This document shows, piece by piece, positions 28,311 to 37,148 of a stretch of 49,531 bases of DNA. The translations under genes and the position numbers were made by a program. Position 1 is the first letter of the stretch. Every line of letters starts with the position of its first letter. Source of the DNA: Pseudomonadota bacterium (GTDB taxonomy: Bacteria; Pseudomonadota; Gammaproteobacteria; Burkholderiales; Thiobacillaceae). The DNA lies in contig JAJZRE010000013.1 of assembly GCA_021802945.1 (NCBI GenBank), positions 1-49,531 on the forward strand, read 5' to 3'. The notes under the pieces were generated by a model that ran no database searches, was not told the DNA's origin, and saw nothing but the letters and a program-made list of their open reading frames with translations.

Positions 28311-28682
28311 ATGAATGCAGCAGTCAACGATATTGCGGGACAAGTGCGGCCCGGCGTGCTTTCCCTGTCGATCAAGGAAAAGTCCGCGCTGTTTGCGGCC
28401 TACATGCCCTTCATCAAGGGCGGCGGACTGTTCATCCCCACCAACAAGCAGTACAAGATGGGCGAGGAAGTGTTCATGCTGCTCACGCTGATGGACGACC
28501 CCGCCAAGCTGCCTGTATCCGGCAAGGTGGTATGGGTGACGCCCCCGGGCGCTCACGGCGGCCGAACGCAGGGCGTGGGCGTGCAGTTCGCTTTCAACGA
28601 AAGCGGCAAGGCGGCGCAAAACAAGATTGAAGGTTTGCTCGGCGGTTCGTTAAAATCGGTGCGCCCAACCCACACCATGTAG
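28311..28682 (+). CDS. pilZ: PilZ-domain protein, type IV pilus assembly type
   Basis: A 123-residue PilZ protein. GVLSLSIKEKSALFAAYMPFIKGGGLFIPT and KLPVSGKVVWVTPPG match the PilZ proteins needed for type IV pilus biogenesis. It lacks the RxxxR and D/NxSxxG residues that bind cyclic di-GMP, as in that subgroup. An upstream in-frame TTG at 28296 overlaps the holB stop, but the ATG at 28311 gives the family N-terminus. No pilus structural genes are nearby, as is common for this holB-pilZ-tatD arrangement. Confidence 0.9.
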   Translation: MNAAVNDIAGQVRPGVLSLSIKEKSALFAAYMPFIKGGGLFIPTNKQYKMGEEVFMLLTLMDDPAKLPVSGKVVWVTPPGAHGGRTQGVGVQFAFNESGKAAQNKIEGLLGGSLKSVRPTHTM

Positions 28683-28709
28683 CGCCGCCCCGCGGTGCGC
28701 CGACACCGC

Positions 28710-29483
28710 ATGTACATCGACTCCCACTGCCACATCAATTTTCCCGATCTCGCCGGCAAGCTGCCCGAGGTGTTCGACCTCATGGCGCAGAACCAGGTGA
28801 GCCACGCGCTGTGCATCAGCGTGGAACTGGAAAAGTTCCCGGAAATCCGCGCGCTGGCCGAAGCGCATCCGAATGTCTACGCGTCCGTCGGCGTGCATCC
28901 GGATCATGAAGACTGCACCGAACCGACGGTGGCCGAACTGGTCGCACTGGCCGATCATCCCAGGGTGGTGGCGATCGGCGAGACCGGGCTGGATTACTTC
29001 CGCCTGACCGGCGATCTCGAATGGCAGCGCGAGCGTTTCCGCACCCACATCCGCGCCGCGCGTGCCTGCCGCAAGCCGCTGGTGATCCATACCCGCTCCG
29101 CGGCCGACGACACCCTGCGCATCATGCGCGAGGAACACGCGGGCGAGGCCGGCGGCGTGATGCACTGCTTCACCGAAAGCCTGGCGGTGGCCGAGGCGGC
29201 GATCGAGCAGGGGTTCTACATCTCGTTTTCAGGAATCGTCACCTTCAAGAACGCCGCCGTCCTGCGCGAGGTGGCGGCGGCCATTCCGCTGGAACGCATG
29301 CTGATCGAGACCGACGCGCCGTATCTGGCACCGGTGCCGCACCGCGGGCAGACCAACCAGCCGGGCTTCGTGATGCATGTGGCGGAAGCAATCGCGCGGG
29401 TGCGCGGCATGACGGCCGAAGCGGTGGGTGACGCCACGACGCAGAATTTCTTCCGGCTGTTTGCCGCTGCCCGGCCGAACTGA
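28710..29483 (+). CDS. tatD: TatD-family metal-dependent DNase
   Basis: A 257-residue TIM-barrel hydrolase. Metal ligands are visible in IDSHCHINF, GETGLDYF, VIHTRSA, MHCFTES and ETDAPYLAPVPHRGQTN. Proteins of this group (YcfH/TatD) act as 3'-5' nucleases. The ATG at 28710 is preferred to the GTG at 28695 because metal-binding HCH then sits at the usual positions 6-8. Last gene of the yceD-to-tatD run; convergent with dnaJ. Confidence 0.92.
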   Translation: MYIDSHCHINFPDLAGKLPEVFDLMAQNQVSHALCISVELEKFPEIRALAEAHPNVYASVGVHPDHEDCTEPTVAELVALADHPRVVAIGETGLDYFRLTGDLEWQRERFRTHIRAARACRKPLVIHTRSAADDTLRIMREEHAGEAGGVMHCFTESLAVAEAAIEQGFYISFSGIVTFKNAAVLREVAAAIPLERMLIETDAPYLAPVPHRGQTNQPGFVMHVAEAIARVRGMTAEAVGDATTQNFFRLFAAARPN

Positions 29484-29492
29484 AGCAACCAG

Positions 29493-29515
29493 CAGGCCTC
29501 ATCCGCAGGCCTGCC
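29493..29515. terminator. hairpin between convergent tatD and dnaJ
   Basis: GCAGGCCT, a 7-base loop, AGGCCTGC: a perfect 8-bp stem 10 bp after tatD and 14 bp after the dnaJ stop on the other strand. No good U-tract on either side, so terminator strength is doubtful. Confidence 0.4.
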
Positions 29516-29528
29516 GCTTTGACGCGAC

Positions 29529-30641
29529 TTATTGCCCGAAGAAGGACTTCACCTTGTCCATGAACGACTGCGCGCGCGGGTTGTTGTTGCGTCCCGGGCT
29601 CAGGGCCTCGAACTCGCGCAGCAGTTCGCGCTGCCGTTCGGACAGGTTCACCGGCGTTTCCACCAGCATGTGGCACATCAGGTCGCCCGGCGCGTGGCTG
29701 CGCACGCCCTTGATGCCCTTGCCGCGCAGGCGGAACACCTTGCCCGACTGGGTCTCGGCCGGAATCCTGATCTTGGCGTGGCCGTCCAGCGTGGGGATCT
29801 CGACCTCCCCGCCGAGGGCGGCGGTGGCGAAGCTGATCGGCATTTCGCAATGCAGGTCGTCGCCGTCGCGCTTGAACACCGGGTGTTCCTTGAGGTGGAT
29901 CACCACATAGAGGTCGCCGGGCGGGCCGCCGTTGACGCCGGCCTCGCCCTCGCCGGCAAGGCGGATGCGGTCGCCGTTGTCGACGCCGGCGGGAATCTTC
30001 ACTGACAGGGTCTTGTGCTTCTTGACGCGGCCCTCGCCATGGCAGCCGGGGCAGGGGTCGGCCACCATCTTGCCGGTGCCGCCGCAGCGCGGGCAGGTCT
30101 GCTGCACGGAGAAGAAGCCCTGCTGGATGCGGACCTGGCCGTGGCCGCCGCAGGTGGTGCAGGTGGAAGGCGTGGTGCCGGGCCTGGCGCCGCTGCCGTG
30201 GCAGGTGCCGCATTCTTCCAGGGTGGGAATGCGGATCTTGGTCTCGGTGCCGCGCGCGCCTTCTTCGAGTCCGATTTCCAGGTTGTAGCGCAGGTCGGCG
30301 CCGCGATACACGCGGTCGCGGCGATTGCCGCCGCCGCCGAAAATGTCGCCGAAGATGTCCGAGAAGGCATCGGAAAACCCGCCGCCGCCGAAGCCGCCGC
30401 CCATGCCGGCCTGCTGGTCGACGCCGGCGTGGCCGAACTGGTCGTAGGCGGCGCGCTTGTCCGAGTCCGACAGGATTTCGTAGGCCTGCTTGGCTTCCTT
30501 GAATTTCTCCTCCGCACTCTTGTCGCCAGGATTGCGGTCGGGGTGGTGCTTCATGGCCAGCTTGCGGTAGGCCTTCTTGATTTCTTCGTCCGAAGCGTTC
30601 TTGGTGACGCCGAGGACTTCGTAGTAGTCGCGTTTGGACAT
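29529..30641 (-). CDS. dnaJ: chaperone protein DnaJ
   Basis: A 370-residue class I J-protein, the cochaperone that stimulates DnaK ATPase and delivers substrates. The J domain (residues 1-70) has the HPD in KHHPDRNPG, followed by a G/F stretch ([18 protein letters not shown]). The zinc domain has four CxxCxGxG repeats ([32 protein letters not shown]). The ATG at 30641 is chosen over the upstream in-frame start. Unusually it is separated from dnaK by about 3 kb and has its own RpoH-like promoter. Confidence 0.96.
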
Positions 30642-30717
30642 AGGAAAAGCCACGTGTGGAATATCGATGGGCAGGTCTCGCCCGCGCCGGCGGGCGCACC
30701 GTGCGAACCTCGGTCGA

Positions 30718-30745
30718 ATGTGGGGCCGGCCGGGTCGAAATCAAG
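30718..30745 (-). promoter_or_regulatory. RpoH (sigma-32) promoter of dnaJ
   Basis: On the minus strand: -35 CTTGATT (30739-30745), a 13-bp spacer, -10 CCCCACAT (30718-30725). The -10 box is identical to that found before dnaK. Predicted start near 30710, about 70 bases before dnaJ. The -35 differs from CTTGAAA at one or two bases. Confidence 0.6.
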
Positions 30746-30850
30746 GGGCATGCCGCTTCAGTTGTTGCCGCGGGCGCGGCCGAAGCGCCCGCGGCCGTCA
30801 AGGCCGGGCGCAAGTGTAGCGGATATCGGGCCGGGCGTCGCGCCTCAGCC

Positions 30851-31219
30851 TCAGCGCACCGATCCGAAGGATGGATCCGCGTCGTGCGGCGCCTCGGGCA
30901 GGCCGGCAAGCCGCATGCCGACGCGCACCGGACCGCCCGGGAACAGCGTGTACAGCCACTGGCCGCCGCCCTCGGCTGCGAAATGCGCTTCGAGCTTCAG
31001 CAGGATACCGCGGGCATCCTGCCGGCTGCCGCCATGGTCGATGATGTGCTCCCGCAGCCAGTCCAGCACCCGGAAGTGGTCCCCGGTGAGGTCGATGCCT
31101 TCCGCGCGGGCCAGGTCGCGCGCGATTTCATGCGACCAGTCGTCGAGTTCGACCCAGTCGCCGTAATAGTTCTGTACGAGTTGCCGGCCCTCTGCGGCGG
31201 CCAGAATGGGATGCGTCAT
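30851..31219 (-). CDS. DsrC/TusE-fold protein without any cysteine
   Basis: A 122-residue protein that aligns along its length with TusE/DsrC sulfur-relay proteins: WVELDDWSHEIARDLARAEGI, LTGDHFRVLDWLREH, and WLYTLFPGGPVR followed by AGLPEAP. TusE and DsrC carry persulfide or trisulfide on a Cys in the C-terminal arm. Here that arm ends PSFGSVR and the whole protein has no Cys, so sulfur transfer by the known route is impossible. Cys-free relatives are known in sulfur bacteria and have been proposed to be regulatory. ATG 31219 has AGGTGG five bases upstream, better than GTG 31228. It is the last gene of the hsp20 operon, 12 bp after hsp20 A. Function unknown. Confidence 0.75.
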   Translation of the reverse strand: MTHPILAAAEGRQLVQNYYGDWVELDDWSHEIARDLARAEGIDLTGDHFRVLDWLREHIIDHGGSRQDARGILLKLEAHFAAEGGGQWLYTLFPGGPVRVGMRLAGLPEAPHDADPSFGSVR

Positions 31220-31231
31220 GGCGGCCACCTT

Positions 31232-31738
31232 TCACTCGATCTTGATGCTGACCGACCGGGGCCTGCCGACGTGCTGCTTGGGCAGCTCCACCTTGAGCAC
31301 ACCGTTGCGGTAGCTGGCTACCGCTTCCTCGGCCTTGACCGCTACCGGCAGCGGCACCGCGCGGCGGAAGGCGCCGTAGGCGCATTGCATCACCCGCCAG
31401 CGCCCCTCGGTGTTTTCACTCTGGAAGCGTTTCTCTCCGGACACTATCAGGGCGTCGTCCAGCACCTGAATGTCCAGCGCCTCTTTTTCCAGTCCCGGCA
31501 CTTCCAGCCTGACCACCAGGCGCTGGTCGTCCTCGAACACGTCGCCGCCCAGCATCGACCAGCCGCGGGTGGGCAGCCAGGATACGTCGTCTACGTTGCC
31601 GGTGTCCGGCAGGTCGGTTTTTTCACTGGGCCTGAACCGGGTCAGCGCGCCGCCGGCCGACTGCAGCAGGTGCCGCCAGCCTTCGGCGAGACTGTCCCAG
31701 AATGCGCCCACGTTTTCCTTCAGGTTTTCCAGTTTCAT
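31232..31738 (-). CDS. small heat-shock protein Hsp20 (A), long N-terminal arm
   Basis: A 168-residue ATP-independent holdase. The N-terminal arm (residues about 1-60) is Trp-rich and amphipathic: AFWDSLAEGWRHLLQSAGG. The alpha-crystallin domain follows, with EVPGLEKEALDIQVLDDALIVSG, the hallmark YRNGVLKVELPK, and a C-terminal I-x-I anchor (SIKIE). Start ATG 31738 with GGGAG upstream. Third gene of the hsp20 operon; the arm differs strongly from its two neighbours, suggesting a separate substrate range or mixed oligomers. Confidence 0.92.
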   Translation of the reverse strand: MKLENLKENVGAFWDSLAEGWRHLLQSAGGALTRFRPSEKTDLPDTGNVDDVSWLPTRGWSMLGGDVFEDDQRLVVRLEVPGLEKEALDIQVLDDALIVSGEKRFQSENTEGRWRVMQCAYGAFRRAVPLPVAVKAEEAVASYRNGVLKVELPKQHVGRPRSVSIKIE

Positions 31739-31788
31739 GATGATCTCCCGGTGCAAAATCAGCCGGCCGGATCGTCGGCCGGCACGCT

Positions 31789-32160
31789 TCAGGCTGCCTG
31801 GATGGCGATCTTGCGCGCCTGCGCGTGCGCCGCCTTGGGAATGCGCAGCTTCAGCACGCCATCGCGGAACTCGGCACTCACTTTCTCGCTGTCCAGTTCC
31901 TTCGACAGGGTGAATGCCCGGCGGTAGCGGGGCAGGCCGACCTCAGCATGGCTCGCCTTCAGGTCTTCTGGCGTGTTCAGCAGCATATCGCCCTCGATGG
32001 TGAGGGTATCGGCTTCTATCTGCAGGCTGAGCTTGTCCTTCGGCACGCCGGGCAGGTCGGCGTAGAGGGTGATGCCGTTGGCATCCTCGATCACATCCAC
32101 GGGCGGCAGCAGGGCCGCATTCTCGTGCTGGGTTTCAGCAACCTGGGTCTTGTCGGTCAT
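31789..32160 (-). CDS. small heat-shock protein Hsp20 (B), minimal form
   Basis: A 123-residue Hsp20 that is almost only alpha-crystallin domain. PPVDVIEDANGITLYADLPGVPKDKL opens the domain at about residue 19, FRDGVLKLRIPK is the GVL motif, and the tail ends with I-x-I (KIAIQAA). The very short N-terminal arm limits self-assembly in most sHsps, so it may work by joining larger oligomers with its neighbours. It lies 12 bp after hsp20 C and 50 bp before hsp20 A. Confidence 0.92.
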   Translation of the reverse strand: MTDKTQVAETQHENAALLPPVDVIEDANGITLYADLPGVPKDKLSLQIEADTLTIEGDMLLNTPEDLKASHAEVGLPRYRRAFTLSKELDSEKVSAEFRDGVLKLRIPKAAHAQARKIAIQAA

Positions 32161-32172
32161 GGCTGGGCTCCT

Positions 32173-32607
32173 TCATTGAATGGTGATACGCCGGGGCCGG
32201 GAGGCCTCCCTGCGGCCCACGCTGATGGTCAGCACGCCGTCGCCGTATCGGGCGGAAGCACTGTTGGCGTCCACGTCGTCAGGCAGGGACACGACCCGGC
32301 GGAAGCGGCCGGCGAAGCGCTCGTCGGTATGCACGGCGGCCTGCTCCGGCACGTCCTCCGCCTTGCGTTCGCCGCTGATGGTGAGCACGCCTTTCTCGAT
32401 CTGCACGTCGAGGCTATCGGGCTCGATGCCTGGAACAAAGGCATAGACTTCCACCGAGCGCGGCGTGCTGCCTACGTTCATGGCCGGGAAACCGTGGGTC
32501 ATGCCGCGGATGCTGGGGGACAGATCGAGCGCCTGATGCCGCAGCGCGCGTTGCAGGCGATCCATTTCCGCGAACAGGTCGCGGGGAAACAGGGTGCGAT
32601 ACAACAT
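32173..32607 (-). CDS. small heat-shock protein Hsp20 (C), first gene of operon
   Basis: A 144-residue Hsp20. The arm begins LYRTLFPRDLFAEMDRLQRALRH, similar to IbpA/HspH-type arms, then NVGSTPRSVEVYAFVPGIEPDSLDVQIEKG, YGDGVLTISVGR and a C-terminal I-x-I (RITIQ). The ATG at 32607 is fixed by a perfect AGGAGG. A 7-bp hairpin in the leader (32636-32653) lies near the predicted transcript 5' end but does not cover the ribosome site, and no ROSE-type thermometer motif was seen. Transcribed from the RpoH-like promoter at 32662-32689. Confidence 0.92.
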   Translation of the reverse strand: MLYRTLFPRDLFAEMDRLQRALRHQALDLSPSIRGMTHGFPAMNVGSTPRSVEVYAFVPGIEPDSLDVQIEKGVLTISGERKAEDVPEQAAVHTDERFAGRFRRVVSLPDDVDANSASARYGDGVLTISVGRREASRPRRITIQ

Positions 32608-32661
32608 GTTCGAACCTCCTTTACGGTATTTGCGCGAGCGGCCCATGCCGCTCCTGCCATA

Positions 32662-32689
32662 TAAATTGGGGGGACTGGGATGATTTCAA
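32662..32689 (-). promoter_or_regulatory. RpoH (sigma-32) promoter of the hsp20-DsrC-like operon
   Basis: On the minus strand: -35 TTGAAA (32684-32689), a 12-bp spacer, -10 CCCCAATTTA (32662-32671), close to CTTGAAA-N11-16-CCCCATNTA. Predicted start near 32655, 48 bases before hsp20 C. The -35 is one arm of the palindrome TTTCAATAGCTTGAAA shared with the divergent promoter. Confidence 0.75.
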
Positions 32690-32692
32690 TAG

Positions 32693-32722
32693 CTTGAAAC
32701 GCGCATCGCCGTTTCCCATATT
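32693..32722 (+). promoter_or_regulatory. RpoH (sigma-32) promoter of the psiE-like gene
   Basis: -35 CTTGAAA (32693-32699, exact), a 14-bp spacer, -10 TCCCATATT (32714-32722), one mismatch to CCCCATNT. Predicted start near 32730, giving a leader of about 165 bases. Back to back with the hsp20 promoter. Confidence 0.65.
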
Positions 32723-32895
32723 GCAATGGCTAACCCAGGCTCGATTGTTTGGGTTGAAGCCGGAAGAAAGCGGGTTCCCGCATAGCGGGCGTGCGGCCGG
32801 GGCGCGGCGTTCTGCGGATATGCACCGATGCGCGCCCATCAGGGAGAACAGCGACACTGACGGTTTCCACGAGGCGCCACGAAGGGAGACATTAC

Positions 32896-33417
32896 ATGGC
32901 CAATCAACGCAAACGATCCGACCTGCAACGGCTCTACAAGGAATGGAGCGTGATGACTTTCTACGAACGCTTCGAGCAGGTCGTCGCACTCATTCTGTCC
33001 GCAACGATCGCCGTCATCGTAGTGGTATCCCTCGTCCAGCTCGTCCGCACGGTATTCACCCTGCTGTTCCTGGAAGCCTTCAATCCGCTCGATCACCAGG
33101 TTTTCCAGACCGTGTTCGGCATGATCATGACCCTGCTTATCGCCATGGAATTCAAGCACTCCATCATCAAGGTCGCCTTGCGCCGCGACAGCATCATCCA
33201 GGTGAAGACGGTGGTGCTCATCGCGCTCATCGCGCTCGCCCGCAAGTTCGTCATTCTCGATCCGGACAGCGGGCCGGCCAAGGTCGCCGCACTGGCGGGC
33301 GCCAGCCTGGCGCTGGGCGTGGTCTACTGGTTGCTGCTGCGGGCGCAGGACGATCACGAAGCGACAGCCAGCCGTTCCGAACCGGAGACCGCCGCAAATA
33401 CCGGCAAAACTGTCTGA
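32896..33417 (+). CDS. PsiE-family membrane protein
   Basis: A 173-residue protein of the phosphate-starvation-inducible PsiE family. Four hydrophobic segments (about residues 25-50, 65-85, 100-120, 130-150) surround the family core MEFKHSIIKVALRR and IALARKFVILD. E. coli psiE responds to phosphate and cAMP-CRP, and PsiE homologues occur in the heat-resistance island tLST; the molecular function is unknown. The ATG at 32896 with GAAGGGAG upstream is chosen over an in-frame start at 32791. It is divergent from the hsp20 operon and has an RpoH-like promoter, so here it is probably heat-shock induced. Confidence 0.8.
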   Translation: MANQRKRSDLQRLYKEWSVMTFYERFEQVVALILSATIAVIVVVSLVQLVRTVFTLLFLEAFNPLDHQVFQTVFGMIMTLLIAMEFKHSIIKVALRRDSIIQVKTVVLIALIALARKFVILDPDSGPAKVAALAGASLALGVVYWLLLRAQDDHEATASRSEPETAANTGKTV

Positions 33418-33486
33418 CGGGTGTTTCACCGGGAAAGCGTCCTCTGCCGGGAACGGGCGCATTGGCCTGGCGGTCGTCACGGGCGC

Positions 33487-33510
33487 AAAAAAGCCGGCCC
33501 GGAGGCCGGC
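33487..33510 (-). terminator. intrinsic terminator of grpE-dnaK
   Basis: Read on the minus strand: a 7-bp stem GCCGGCC/GGCCGGC with a 4-base loop, then six T. It lies 94 bp after the dnaK stop and would separate the grpE-dnaK transcript from the hsp20 region. On the plus strand, after the psiE-like gene, the same hairpin lacks a U-tract. Confidence 0.8.
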
Positions 33511-33603
33511 TGCATGACAGAAGCGGAACGGCACGACACGCCGGCCGGTTTTGTATGCTTGCAGGACCTGGCTCGGTCCTGAATACTCAGCTCGCTGCCA
33601 TCC

Positions 33604-35529
<1,926 letters not shown>

Positions 35530-35565
35530 GATGCGTTCCTTCTAAGAGAGATTGAATTGATTCGA

Positions 35566-35593
35566 ATGTGGGGGAGGTCAGACTTAATTCAAG
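35566..35593 (-). promoter_or_regulatory. RpoH (sigma-32) promoter of dnaK
   Basis: On the minus strand: -35 CTTGAAT (35587-35593), a 13-bp spacer, -10 CCCCACAT (35566-35573). It lies in the grpE-dnaK gap, with the predicted start about 30 bases before dnaK. It lets dnaK be made in excess of grpE. Confidence 0.65.
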
Positions 35594-35602
35594 ACGTTGT
35601 GC

Positions 35603-36124
35603 TCAAGCATCCTTGCCCTTGGCCACCATCACCAGCGCCGGCCGCAGCGTGCGCTCGTTCAGGCGGTAGCCCTTTTGCAGCACCGTCACCACGGTGTTGG
35701 CCGGCTGGTCGGACTCGACCATCTGGATCGCCTGGTGCTGATGCGGATCGAATTTCTCGCCCAGCGGGTCGATGTCGATGAGGTTGAACTTGCCGAACGC
35801 GGCCACCAGCTGCTTCAGGGTCAGCTCGACGCCGTCCTTCATGTTTTCAACGCTCGGCGACTCGACCGCCAGCGCGGCCTCCAGGCTGTCCTTCACCGCC
35901 AGCAGTTCGCCGGCGAAGTTCTCCACCGCAAACTTGCGCGCCTTGTCCACGTCTTCCGCCGCGCGGCGCCGCATGTTCTCGGTTTCAGCCTTGGCACGCA
36001 ACCACGCATCGTGGTGCTCGGCGGCCTGGAGTTCGGCTGCTTTCAGCAATTCCTCCAGGCTGGGCATGCTTTCCTTTTCCGGTCGGGTGGCTGAAGTCGT
36101 GTCGGTGTTCAGTTCGTCCTGCAT
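35603..36124 (-). CDS. grpE: nucleotide exchange factor GrpE
   Basis: A 173-residue DnaK cochaperone releasing ADP. The long N-terminal coiled coil (residues about 15-75: [39 protein letters not shown]) is followed by the beta domain with [14 protein letters not shown] and [23 protein letters not shown]. The ATG at 36124, preceded by GGGAG, is preferred over an in-frame TTG at 36136. First gene of the chaperone cluster. Confidence 0.96.
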
Positions 36125-36152
36125 GTGGGCTCCCAATTGGTACTGGCGGGAG

Positions 36153-36180
36153 AACTGGGGACGAACGAGCGGGATTCAAG
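36153..36180 (-). promoter_or_regulatory. RpoH (sigma-32) promoter of grpE
   Basis: On the minus strand: -35 CTTGAAT (36174-36180), a 13-bp spacer, -10 CCCCAGTT (36153-36160). Predicted start near 36146, about 22 bases before grpE. Confidence 0.65.
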
Positions 36181-36238
36181 GGGCAAACGTCATTTTTTCT
36201 GTTCCCGCGCCGCCGGGAAGCGCGTTACCCACTCCAAT

Positions 36239-36267
36239 TTGCCGCGCGCGGGGCCTTCCGGTATGAT
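36239..36267 (+). promoter_or_regulatory. sigma-70 promoter of tRNA-Ser
   Basis: -35 TTGCCG (36239-36244), a 17-bp spacer, -10 TATGAT (36262-36267), then a GC-rich discriminator (GCGCCGC) typical of stable-RNA promoters under stringent control. It starts about 8-11 bases before the tRNA. Confidence 0.65.
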
Positions 36268-36278
36268 GCGCCGCTCTC

Positions 36279-36369
36279 GGAGAGGTGGATGAGTGGTTTA
36301 AGTCGCACGCCTGGAAAGCGTGTTCAGGATAATATCCTGACGGGGGTTCGAATCCCCCCCTCTCCGCCA
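36279..36369 (+). tRNA. tRNA-Ser (anticodon GGA)
   Basis: A 91-base class II tRNA. The acceptor stem GGAGAGG pairs with CCTCTCC, followed by discriminator G and encoded CCA. The anticodon loop CTGGAAA has GGA at 36313-36315, the long variable arm is TCAGGATAATATCCTGA, and the T-arm is GGGGGTTCGAATCCCCC. GGA reads UCC and UCU serine codons. The GT2 operon begins 30 bases downstream. Confidence 0.97.
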
Positions 36370-36398
36370 CACACCTATCAACTGCCACGCTGAACACG

Positions 36399-37148
36399 AT
36401 GCCGAAACATGCCTACCACGGCAGGCTTTCCGTGGTTGTACCCGTCAAGAACGAGCAGGACAACGTCGAGCCCCTGGTGCGCGAAATCGCGGCGGCGCTG
36501 TCCGGCAACACCACGTTCGAAATCCTCTACATCGACGACGGCAGCACCGATGCGACCCAGGCACGCCTGCAGGCGCTCAAGGCCGAGTTTCCGATGCTGC
36601 GGGTGATCCGCCACCGCGCCTCGTGCGGGCAGAGCCGGGCCGTGACCACGGGCGTGAACGCGGCGCGCCACGAGTGGATCGCCACCCTCGACGGCGATGG
36701 ACAGAACGATCCGGCCGACATTCCAGCGCTGCTCGCCCAATTGACCAATCCTTCGCAGCCCGCCAATCTGGAGTTGCTGGCGGGCTGGCGCGCCAAGCGC
36801 AACGACACCTTCCTGCGCCGCGTCTCTTCAAGAATCGCCAACGGCGTGCGCTCGCGCATGCTGAGGGACAACACGCCGGACACCGGCTGCGGCCTCAAGG
36901 TCTTTGCCCGCGAGACGTTTCTGCAACTTCCCAATTTCGATCACATGCACCGTTTCCTGCCGGCGCTGGTGATGCGCAACGGCGGCGCGGTGGTGTCGGT
37001 GCCGGTGCATCACCGCGCGCGCGAACGCGGCACCTCCAAGTACGGCGTGCACAACCGCCTGTGGGTGGGGATCGTCGACCTGTTCGGCGTGGCCTGGCTG
37101 CAGCGTCGGGTGCGCCTGCCGATCGTCGAGCCCGATTCAGACGTATAG
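36399..37148 (+). CDS. glycosyltransferase family 2, polyprenyl-phosphate type
   Basis: A 249-residue GT-A enzyme like DPM1/ArnC. SVVVPVKNEQDNVEPLV starts the nucleotide-sugar domain, followed by IDDGSTDAT and the metal/acceptor motif LDGDGQNDP. A DTGCGLKVFARE segment is shared with dolichol-phosphate-mannose-type enzymes. There are no C-terminal membrane helices, so it is peripheral. It probably moves a sugar from a nucleotide donor to undecaprenyl phosphate on the cytoplasmic face. Its stop abuts the VTT gene start; with GT83 it forms a three-gene operon after tRNA-Ser. The sugar is unknown. Confidence 0.85.
   Translation: MPKHAYHGRLSVVVPVKNEQDNVEPLVREIAAALSGNTTFEILYIDDGSTDATQARLQALKAEFPMLRVIRHRASCGQSRAVTTGVNAARHEWIATLDGDGQNDPADIPALLAQLTNPSQPANLELLAGWRAKRNDTFLRRVSSRIANGVRSRMLRDNTPDTGCGLKVFARETFLQLPNFDHMHRFLPALVMRNGGAVVSVPVHHRARERGTSKYGVHNRLWVGIVDLFGVAWLQRRVRLPIVEPDSDV

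What the first reader, a model, noticed from the sequence alone, without database searches (positions are those of the whole stretch)
30851..33417. Hsp20-DsrC-PsiE stress module between dnaK and dnaJ
Bacteria usually keep grpE-dnaK-dnaJ together. Here about 3 kb separates dnaK from dnaJ: three dissimilar Hsp20 genes, a Cys-free DsrC/TusE-like gene and a divergent PsiE-like gene. sHsp plus PsiE is also part of the transmissible locus of stress tolerance (tLST), which in addition has ClpK/ClpG, YfdX, HdeD, thioredoxin, KefB and DegP, none of which are here. It may be a chromosomal relative or precursor of that island, or a separate module centred on protein holding and sulfur-linked control.
Basis: partly seen in the sequence, partly recalled or inferred. 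Interest (0 to 1): 0.75.

Follow-up and report, generated by a model that had tools for sequence, protein, structure and literature searches.

The report
Stress-gene cassette splitting dnaK from dnaJ
In this Thiobacillus genome a compact set of heat-stress genes sits between the usually adjacent chaperone genes dnaK and dnaJ; it looks like a shortened chromosomal relative of a mobile heat-tolerance island, with an unusual cysteine-free DsrC-like partner.

Summary
In a Thiobacillus MAG, 2,953 bp with three dissimilar Hsp20 genes (C-B-A), a Cys-free DsrC-like gene and a divergent psiE separate dnaK from dnaJ. Of 42 congeneric genomes with both genes on one contig (G000 included), the other 41 have 80-343 bp. 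Relatives (G048, G098, G315; dnaJ side of G023) hold a larger island in the same slot: CbpA-CbpM-HtpX-FtsH-Trx-(KefB)-(PsiE)-DegP opposite the Hsp20-DsrC operon. PsiE is tLST-type (about 69% identical to plasmid PsiE beside HtpX/clpK); the Hsp20s are not. So this is a reduced or recombined chromosomal relative of tLST, not a tLST. Of 54 gene upstreams, only grpE, dnaK, hsp20C and dnaJ have strong sigma32-like sites; another site points at psiE. DsrC directly follows Hsp20A in 9 of 10 loci and is Cys-free in 10 of 10, against canonical sulfur relay. Most likely a heat-shock holding/refolding cassette plugged into the DnaK system; the DsrC role is a guess. Origin by deletion is likely but unproven: its PsiE does not group with that of G048.

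The parts
29529..30653 (-). dnaJ (ATG probably 30641), displaced 2953 bp from dnaK
   Evidence: (PRK10767 1.2e-183)
30718..30745 (-). sigma32-like site before dnaJ (CTTGAT..CCCCACAT, 11 of 13)
   Evidence: consensus recalled, not a promoter test
30851..31219 (-). Cys-free DsrC-like gene, 122 aa, tail DPSFGSVR
31232..31738 (-). Hsp20A, partner directly upstream of DsrC
31789..32160 (-). Hsp20B
32173..32607 (-). Hsp20C, first gene of the Hsp20-DsrC operon
32663..32721 (.). back-to-back sigma32-like sites (- towards Hsp20C, 32690-32663; + towards PsiE, 32693-32721) around TTTCAATAGCTTGAAA; same 16 bases in G048 between Hsp20C and CbpA
32896..33417 (+). psiE of the tLST type (GTG at 32791 possible)
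33492..33511 (-). terminator-like hairpin after dnaK
   Evidence: 5 such sites found in 30600-36200, 5.0 expected in shuffles
33604..35529 (-). dnaK
35603..36136 (-). grpE

Best explanation
[quoted passage not shown] Shown: the linkage, the short slot in the other congeners, fuller islands in the same slot in relatives, and the tLST affinity of PsiE. Inferred: on heat or protein damage, sigma32 freed from DnaK/DnaJ transcribes grpE, dnaK, the Hsp20-DsrC operon, psiE and a separately promoted dnaJ; the three sHsps hold different unfolding clients for DnaK-DnaJ-GrpE to refold. The DsrC-like protein most likely acts as a small non-catalytic binding partner or adaptor of Hsp20A rather than a sulfur carrier (weakest step). 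PsiE is a membrane protein of unknown action, now under the promoter that elsewhere serves cbpA. The window probably lost CbpA, CbpM, HtpX, FtsH, Trx and DegP.
For: Slot: 41 other gaps are 80-343 bp, G000 is 2953. G048: dnaJ-DsrC-A-B-C|CbpA-CbpM-HtpX-ftsH on one contig and ftsH-Trx-PsiE-DegP-dnaK on another, each contig ending inside ftsH (families). G098 and G315: the island lies between dnaK and dnaJ (KefB-like and DegP of G315 by Pfam). Window 30631-30870 (DsrC end, intergenic, dnaJ start) aligns with G048 (65.5% over 264 columns, 5e-17), and the Hsp20C upstream region aligns through the shared boxes. The pattern TTTCAA-N(0-8)-TTGAAA lies in the divergent region of 5 of 5 islands of the dnaK-dnaJ slot and in 0 of 12 other regions scanned (pattern chosen after seeing the window). 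Ten cassette DsrCs form one clade (99/99), window with G048 (100/100); Hsp20A gives the same pair (100/96). DsrC directly follows Hsp20A in 9 of 10 loci, and the full C-B-A-DsrC order holds in 6 of 10. PsiE: about 69% identity to PsiE beside HtpX/clpK on plasmids. Of 54 gene upstreams (200 bp), only grpE, dnaK, Hsp20C and dnaJ score 11 or more. The dnaJ site scores 10-12 in 5 of 5 occupied slots and 7-10 in 14 other genomes.
Against: Window PsiE is not sister to G048 PsiE: G048 groups with G023 and G003, and the window is unresolved. The right half of the G048 island is itself like G023 (CbpA, HtpX, FtsH, Trx, PsiE 93-95%) while its DsrC and Hsp20A pair with the window, so a simple deletion from today's G048 island is excluded and the path is uncertain. 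G866 shows PsiE beside C-B-A-DsrC and groESL without FtsH in the stretch read, so PsiE may have joined without a full island. No remnant of lost genes. Sigma32 sites are consensus matches only, from a recalled consensus with a threshold chosen by me; the psiE site lies 203 bp before its ATG, so it missed the 200-bp test; in G048 the site towards Hsp20C scores only 7, and over the 17 divergent regions scanned scores run 7-12 and 7-11, where 8-9 is usual background. The dnaJ scores of the two groups touch at 10. Nothing shows what DsrC or PsiE does. MAG assemblies; G048's island spans two contigs.
Confidence: 0.72

Rival explanations
1. The cassette assembled independently: an Hsp20C-B-A-DsrC unit moved between chaperone operons (dnaK-dnaJ, groESL) and picked up tLST genes piecemeal; the window never held a full island.
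For: Hsp20A occurs in 23 tabulated loci with varying partners within 10 kb: FtsH (G822, G823), FtsH plus a ClpG-like gene at 43-44% (G824, G825b), HtpX (G031, G041), CbpA/CbpM (G826, G345, G046) or the full set. C-B-A-DsrC lies beside groESL in G866 and G825, and C-B-A without DsrC beside groESL in G023. PsiE is not sister to G048 PsiE.
Against: Same slot and orientation, homologous DsrC-to-dnaJ stretch and shared divergent boxes with G048; island in the same slot in genus g10; TTTCAA..TTGAAA in 5 of 5 slot islands and 0 of 12 other regions.
Confidence: 0.3
2. The DsrC-like protein links stress to sulfur metabolism as a sulfur carrier or redox sensor.
For: DsrC family by sequence and fold; host genus is sulfur-oxidising (recalled).
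Against: No Cys in 10 of 10 cassette DsrCs; both C-terminal Cys positions are replaced and the tail is (D/N)PS(F/Y)G. Sulfur binding and strong DsrEFH interaction need the penultimate Cys (PMC3397948, passages).
Confidence: 0.04
3. The DsrC-like protein is a DNA-binding regulator of the locus.
For: DNA binding by A. vinosum DsrC is recalled only; co-transcription order fits.
Against: No call here tested DNA binding; the cassette already has sigma32-like sites; the model has low-confidence ends.
Confidence: 0.12
4. Ordinary neighbourhood without functional meaning: neutral accumulation of stress genes at a permissive site.
For: Most congeners do without it.
Against: Order A-DsrC conserved across two families; sigma32-like sites track the chaperone genes; 19 of 23 Hsp20A loci have a CbpA/CbpM or tLST-type gene within 10 kb.
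Confidence: 0.08

Closest known systems
[quoted passage not shown] LHR, TLPQC)
   Same: tLST-type PsiE; relatives in the same slot also have FtsH, HtpX, Trx, DegP and (G315) a KefB-like gene; sHsps present; truncated tLSTs are known (PMC8290217, passages).
   Different: No ClpG/ClpK in the window slot; Hsp20s are of other clades; CbpA/CbpM and Cys-free DsrC of the relatives are not named in the tLST texts I searched (PMC8290217, PMC7685784, PMC5347186: words CbpA and DsrC absent); a chromosomal chaperone operon as site; sigma32-like sites, whereas clpG-GI is reported sigma32-independent (PMC7685784, passage).
Archetypal tLST in Thiobacillus G053 (L024), beside phage-like genes judged by eye
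   Same: Its PsiE is 69% identical to the window's; its FtsH is 84% identical to that of the G003 island; HtpX and DegP related.
   Different: Has ClpG, cardiolipin synthase-like and GGDEF-EAL genes; no DsrC and no CbpA in the stretch read.
DsrC/TusE family
   Same: Pfam DsrC domain; predicted fold matches A. vinosum DsrC 1yx3 (Foldseek 4e-5, the only match at 0.001 or better).
   Different: No Cys; PSFG tail; clade separate from E. coli TusE and a two-Cys copy of the same genome.
cbpA-cbpM
   Same: Relatives carry a CbpA/CbpM-like pair opposite the Hsp20 operon (DnaJ and MerR_2 domains; names mine).
   Different: Absent from the window slot.

Membership tests
tLST | core dna-hsp20-clpG | tested here: not met
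   no ClpG in 28500-36500; not searched elsewhere in G000; dna not searched
tLST | tLST-type PsiE (orf14) | tested here: met
   about 69% identity to plasmid copies beside HtpX/clpK; phmmer 1.3e-68 to 2e-71 against nine tLST-like PsiEs, 5e-14 or weaker against three others
tLST | tLST-type sHsp20 | tested here: not met
   plasmid and G053 tLST sHsp20 fall outside clades A, B and C, next to A with 80/79 support
tLST | FtsH, HtpX, Trx, DegP | tested here: not met
   absent in the window slot, present in the same slot in G048, G098 and G315
tLST | YfdX, HdeD, KefB | not tested
   no dedicated search in the window
tLST | flanked by mobile elements | tested here: inconclusive
   flanks are dnaK and dnaJ; no transposase noticed by eye among window ORFs, no dedicated search
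DsrC/TusE sulfur carriers | DsrC domain | tested here: met
DsrC/TusE sulfur carriers | penultimate Cys | tested here: not met
   0 of 10 cassette members
sigma32 regulon | sigma32-like promoter | tested here: met
   (sequence only, recalled consensus)
sigma32 regulon | heat induction | not testable with these tools
   needs RNA data

The most novel reading that the evidence does not exclude
Hsp20A and the Cys-free DsrC form a previously undescribed two-part chaperone device: a DsrC fold stripped of its sulfur chemistry and reused as a dedicated sHsp adaptor. The family keeps a chromosomal, sigma32-wired pool of tLST-like parts that shuffle between the dnaK and groESL operons, a possible environmental source of the mobile heat-tolerance island.
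Probability: 0.25. Interest if true: 0.78.

Novelty: new variant of a known kind. Interest (0 to 1): 0.6.

Why it matters
[quoted passage not shown] A chromosomal family of related islands with intermediate states, empty sites and two chaperone-operon slots gives material to study how it assembled. It also points to a testable new sHsp partner, and to a way a genome can split dnaK from dnaJ while keeping a heat-shock-like promoter for each.

Tried and rejected
Looked for remnants of lost island genes in 28500-36500: none convincing. One 65-bp, 71% match of 32774-32837 to the cbpM region of L064 (2.6e-4) was judged possible chance after reading frames by eye. Compared empty sites with the window by eye for shared intergenic sequence or a target duplication: none seen (nine of ten sites printed, that of G003 not). 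Plasmid search for the DsrC-like protein gave only distant family members, 30-33% identity, in 14 records, TusE where a gene was named. A class sample (369 genomes) gave no strong cassette DsrC beyond G000 (3 weak hits). The PsiE tree is poorly resolved with very long branches, and the Hsp20 tree carries long-branch warnings and an unsettled bootstrap, so for PsiE I lean on identity and E-values. Papers: for searches I saw listings only. DsrC with small heat shock: 0 papers; TusE with small heat shock protein: 12, all listed, none on this by title; tLST/Thiobacillus/ClpK/DsrC terms: 83 papers, 20 listed; PsiE/Hsp20/HtpX/FtsH terms: 11; CbpA/CbpM/ClpK terms: 4; Thiobacillus/ClpG/FtsH terms: 12; DsrC paralog terms: 49, 20 listed; DsrC/heterodisulfide terms: 10. 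No listed title or abstract start describes this locus. The library lacks most subscription journals. The name RspA for Cys-free DsrC is recalled; its search gave one unrelated paper.
Full report
What is there. The window is contig C8 of a Thiobacillus-group MAG (G000, 87.6% complete). The genus name comes from the named record L014, 'Thiobacillus sp. isolate W96', whose 10,222-base contig has the length and gene layout of G048:C146, a genome of the same genus code. On the minus strand run grpE, dnaK, then Hsp20C-Hsp20B-Hsp20A-DsrC, then dnaJ; psiE lies on the plus strand between dnaK and Hsp20C. The Hsp20-DsrC genes are tightly spaced (12, 50 and 12 bases between stop and the likely next ATG), as in an operon (coordinates).

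Is the layout unusual? DnaK was searched in 56 genomes of the genus at E 1e-250 (45 hit) and DnaJ at 1e-100 (52 hit). In 42, G000 included, both lie on one contig in the same direction: 41 gaps are 80-343 bp, G000 is 2953 bp. The seven genomes with 98% identical DnaK have 85-127 bp. So the insertion is rare and absent from close relatives.

Same slot elsewhere. The cassette DsrC was sought with an alignment of four members: 8 of 117 genomes of the family, 6 of 399 in an order sample, one of them weak at 3e-29, 2 of 10 in another family, and in a class sample of 369 only G000 plus three weak hits; these samples overlap. That makes 10 genomes with a strong hit. Five have it in the dnaK-dnaJ slot: the window, G048 (both sides, on two contigs that each end inside ftsH), G023 (dnaJ side), G098 and G315. 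Two have it beside groESL (G866, G825; groES and groEL tested by Pfam in G866 only) and three elsewhere (G003, G105, G150). G003 has an ordinary 118-bp dnaK-dnaJ gap and its island on another contig. In G048 the order is dnaJ, DsrC, A, B, C, then divergent CbpA, CbpM, HtpX, FtsH, Trx, PsiE, DegP, dnaK; the families rest. G315 has CbpA to DegP with a KefB-like gene and no PsiE; G098 likewise, its KefB region being broken in my gene calls and named by eye.

Relation to tLST. The window PsiE is about 69% identical to PsiE next to HtpX and clpK on plasmids (1,329 plasmid records match, 1,272 of them at 60-80%; two layouts read). In my ORF set phmmer separates nine tLST-like PsiEs (1.3e-68 to 2e-71) from three others (5e-14 to 9e-9). 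The PsiE tree is weak: the window sits in an open fork with the tLST-like copies, into which the two long-branched chromosomal copies also fall, and is not beside the G048 copy. Hsp20 A, B and C are three clades (99-100% bootstrap); the two tLST sHsp20s lie outside them, next to A with 80/79 support; the tree carries long-branch warnings. G053 holds an archetypal tLST with ClpG, Cls-like, FtsH, a GGDEF-EAL gene, PsiE, HtpX and DegP, with phage-like genes by eye. tLST-type FtsH (69% or more) occurs in 8 of 56 congeners (G039 and G048 partial, G058 with one stop inside); G000 has only a copy at 48%.

The DsrC partner. DsrC directly follows Hsp20A in 9 of 10 loci; in G023 it sits with another Hsp20 while A lies at groESL. 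The ten form one clade (99/99), all without Cys, with a conserved DPSFG-like tail. Other members of the same PSFG-tailed subgroup exist in the genus and beyond; some keep one or two Cys. The predicted fold (pLDDT 77.5, low-confidence ends) matches A. vinosum DsrC. Because sulfur binding is restricted to the penultimate Cys there (PMC3397948, passages), a sulfur-carrier role is unlikely. Hsp20A is wider than its partner: 23 of 117 family genomes at 1e-35, 20 strong (1e-85 or better) and 3 weak. I tabulated 23 strong loci (21 in the family, counting two in G825, plus G105 and G150; the three weak ones were not fetched): 19 of 23 have a CbpA/CbpM or tLST-type gene within 10 kb at identity cut-offs that I set, 16 of 23 without counting CbpA/CbpM, and 9 have DsrC. 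The four without are G023 (groESL), G055, G831 (3.4-kb contig) and G059 (8.4-kb contig).

Wiring. I scored a recalled sigma32 consensus. Among 54 predicted gene starts (200 bp each) only grpE, dnaK (12), Hsp20C and dnaJ (11) reach 11 or more of 13. Scanning the whole window on both strands, 8 distinct sites reach 11, five of them at these genes and towards psiE; of 790 windows of 250 bp, which include these sites, 15 reach 11. The psiE site is 203 bp before its ATG. The 16-base core TTTCAATAGCTTGAAA is identical between Hsp20C and CbpA in G048, and the homology runs from Hsp20C up to it, so psiE appears to use what is the cbpA promoter elsewhere. The looser pattern TTTCAA-N(0-8)-TTGAAA is in all five islands of the dnaK-dnaJ slot and in none of the 12 other regions scanned (chosen after the fact). 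Against this, the sites in other loci are uneven: 7-12 to the right and 7-11 towards the Hsp20 side over 17 regions, G048 scoring only 7 towards Hsp20C. dnaJ has its own site (10-12) in 5 of 5 occupied slots, against 7-10 in 14 other genomes, of which G022, G026, G041 and G045 had no dnaK hit, so that their slot is not known to be empty. A terminator-like hairpin follows dnaK (number no higher than in shuffles).

Reading. Most likely a sigma32-run holding/refolding cassette inside the DnaK operon, derived from a tLST-like chromosomal island by loss and recombination. Shown: layout, rarity, relatives, clades. Inferred: heat induction, holding function, DsrC as adaptor, loss as the route. Against a simple loss: G048's island is chimeric (its CbpA, HtpX, FtsH, Trx and PsiE resemble G023 at 93-95%, while its DsrC and Hsp20A pair with the window), and G866 shows PsiE near the cassette and groESL with no FtsH in the stretch read.

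Novelty. Truncated and variable tLSTs are known (PMC8290217: abstract, section 11 and passages seen). The words CbpA and DsrC do not occur in the held main texts of PMC8290217, PMC7685784 and PMC5347186 (passages seen), and no title or abstract start listed describes this locus or the dnaK-dnaJ slot; most listed papers were not opened. I file it as a new variant of a known kind.

Noticed in passing
L097, L104, L105, L108, L096, L102: Hsp20A without DsrC sits divergently beside a tLST-type FtsH or HtpX gene in other family members, in two cases with a ClpG-like gene at 43-44%.
   Followed up: partly
L023, L075, L076: A second slot: Hsp20C-B-A beside groES-groEL with an unknown 212-239 aa protein (no Pfam hit for the L075 copy).
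   Followed up: partly
L015 with L031 against L017 and L016: The G048 island is a chimera: Hsp20A/DsrC side pairs with the window, CbpA-to-PsiE side like G023.
   Followed up: partly
window 31232-31738: Hsp20A keeps one invariant Cys (C119, QCAYG) in 10 of 10 aligned copies, while its DsrC partner has none.
   Followed up: no
L018-L021, L081: A PSFG-tailed DsrC paralog lacking both C-terminal Cys but with one internal Cys is seen in four congeners, in some beside genes resembling alr and dnaB by eye.
   Followed up: no
L024: Archetypal tLST (Hsp20-ClpG-Cls-FtsH-GGDEF/EAL-PsiE-HtpX-DegP) in a Thiobacillus genome, next to phage-like genes by eye.
   Followed up: partly
window 31762-31783: Terminator-like hairpin between Hsp20B and Hsp20A; possible attenuation, no better than chance by count.
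   Followed up: no
L063 3408-4193: An ISXO2-like transposase gene lies between trx and ftsH inside the G098 island.
   Followed up: no
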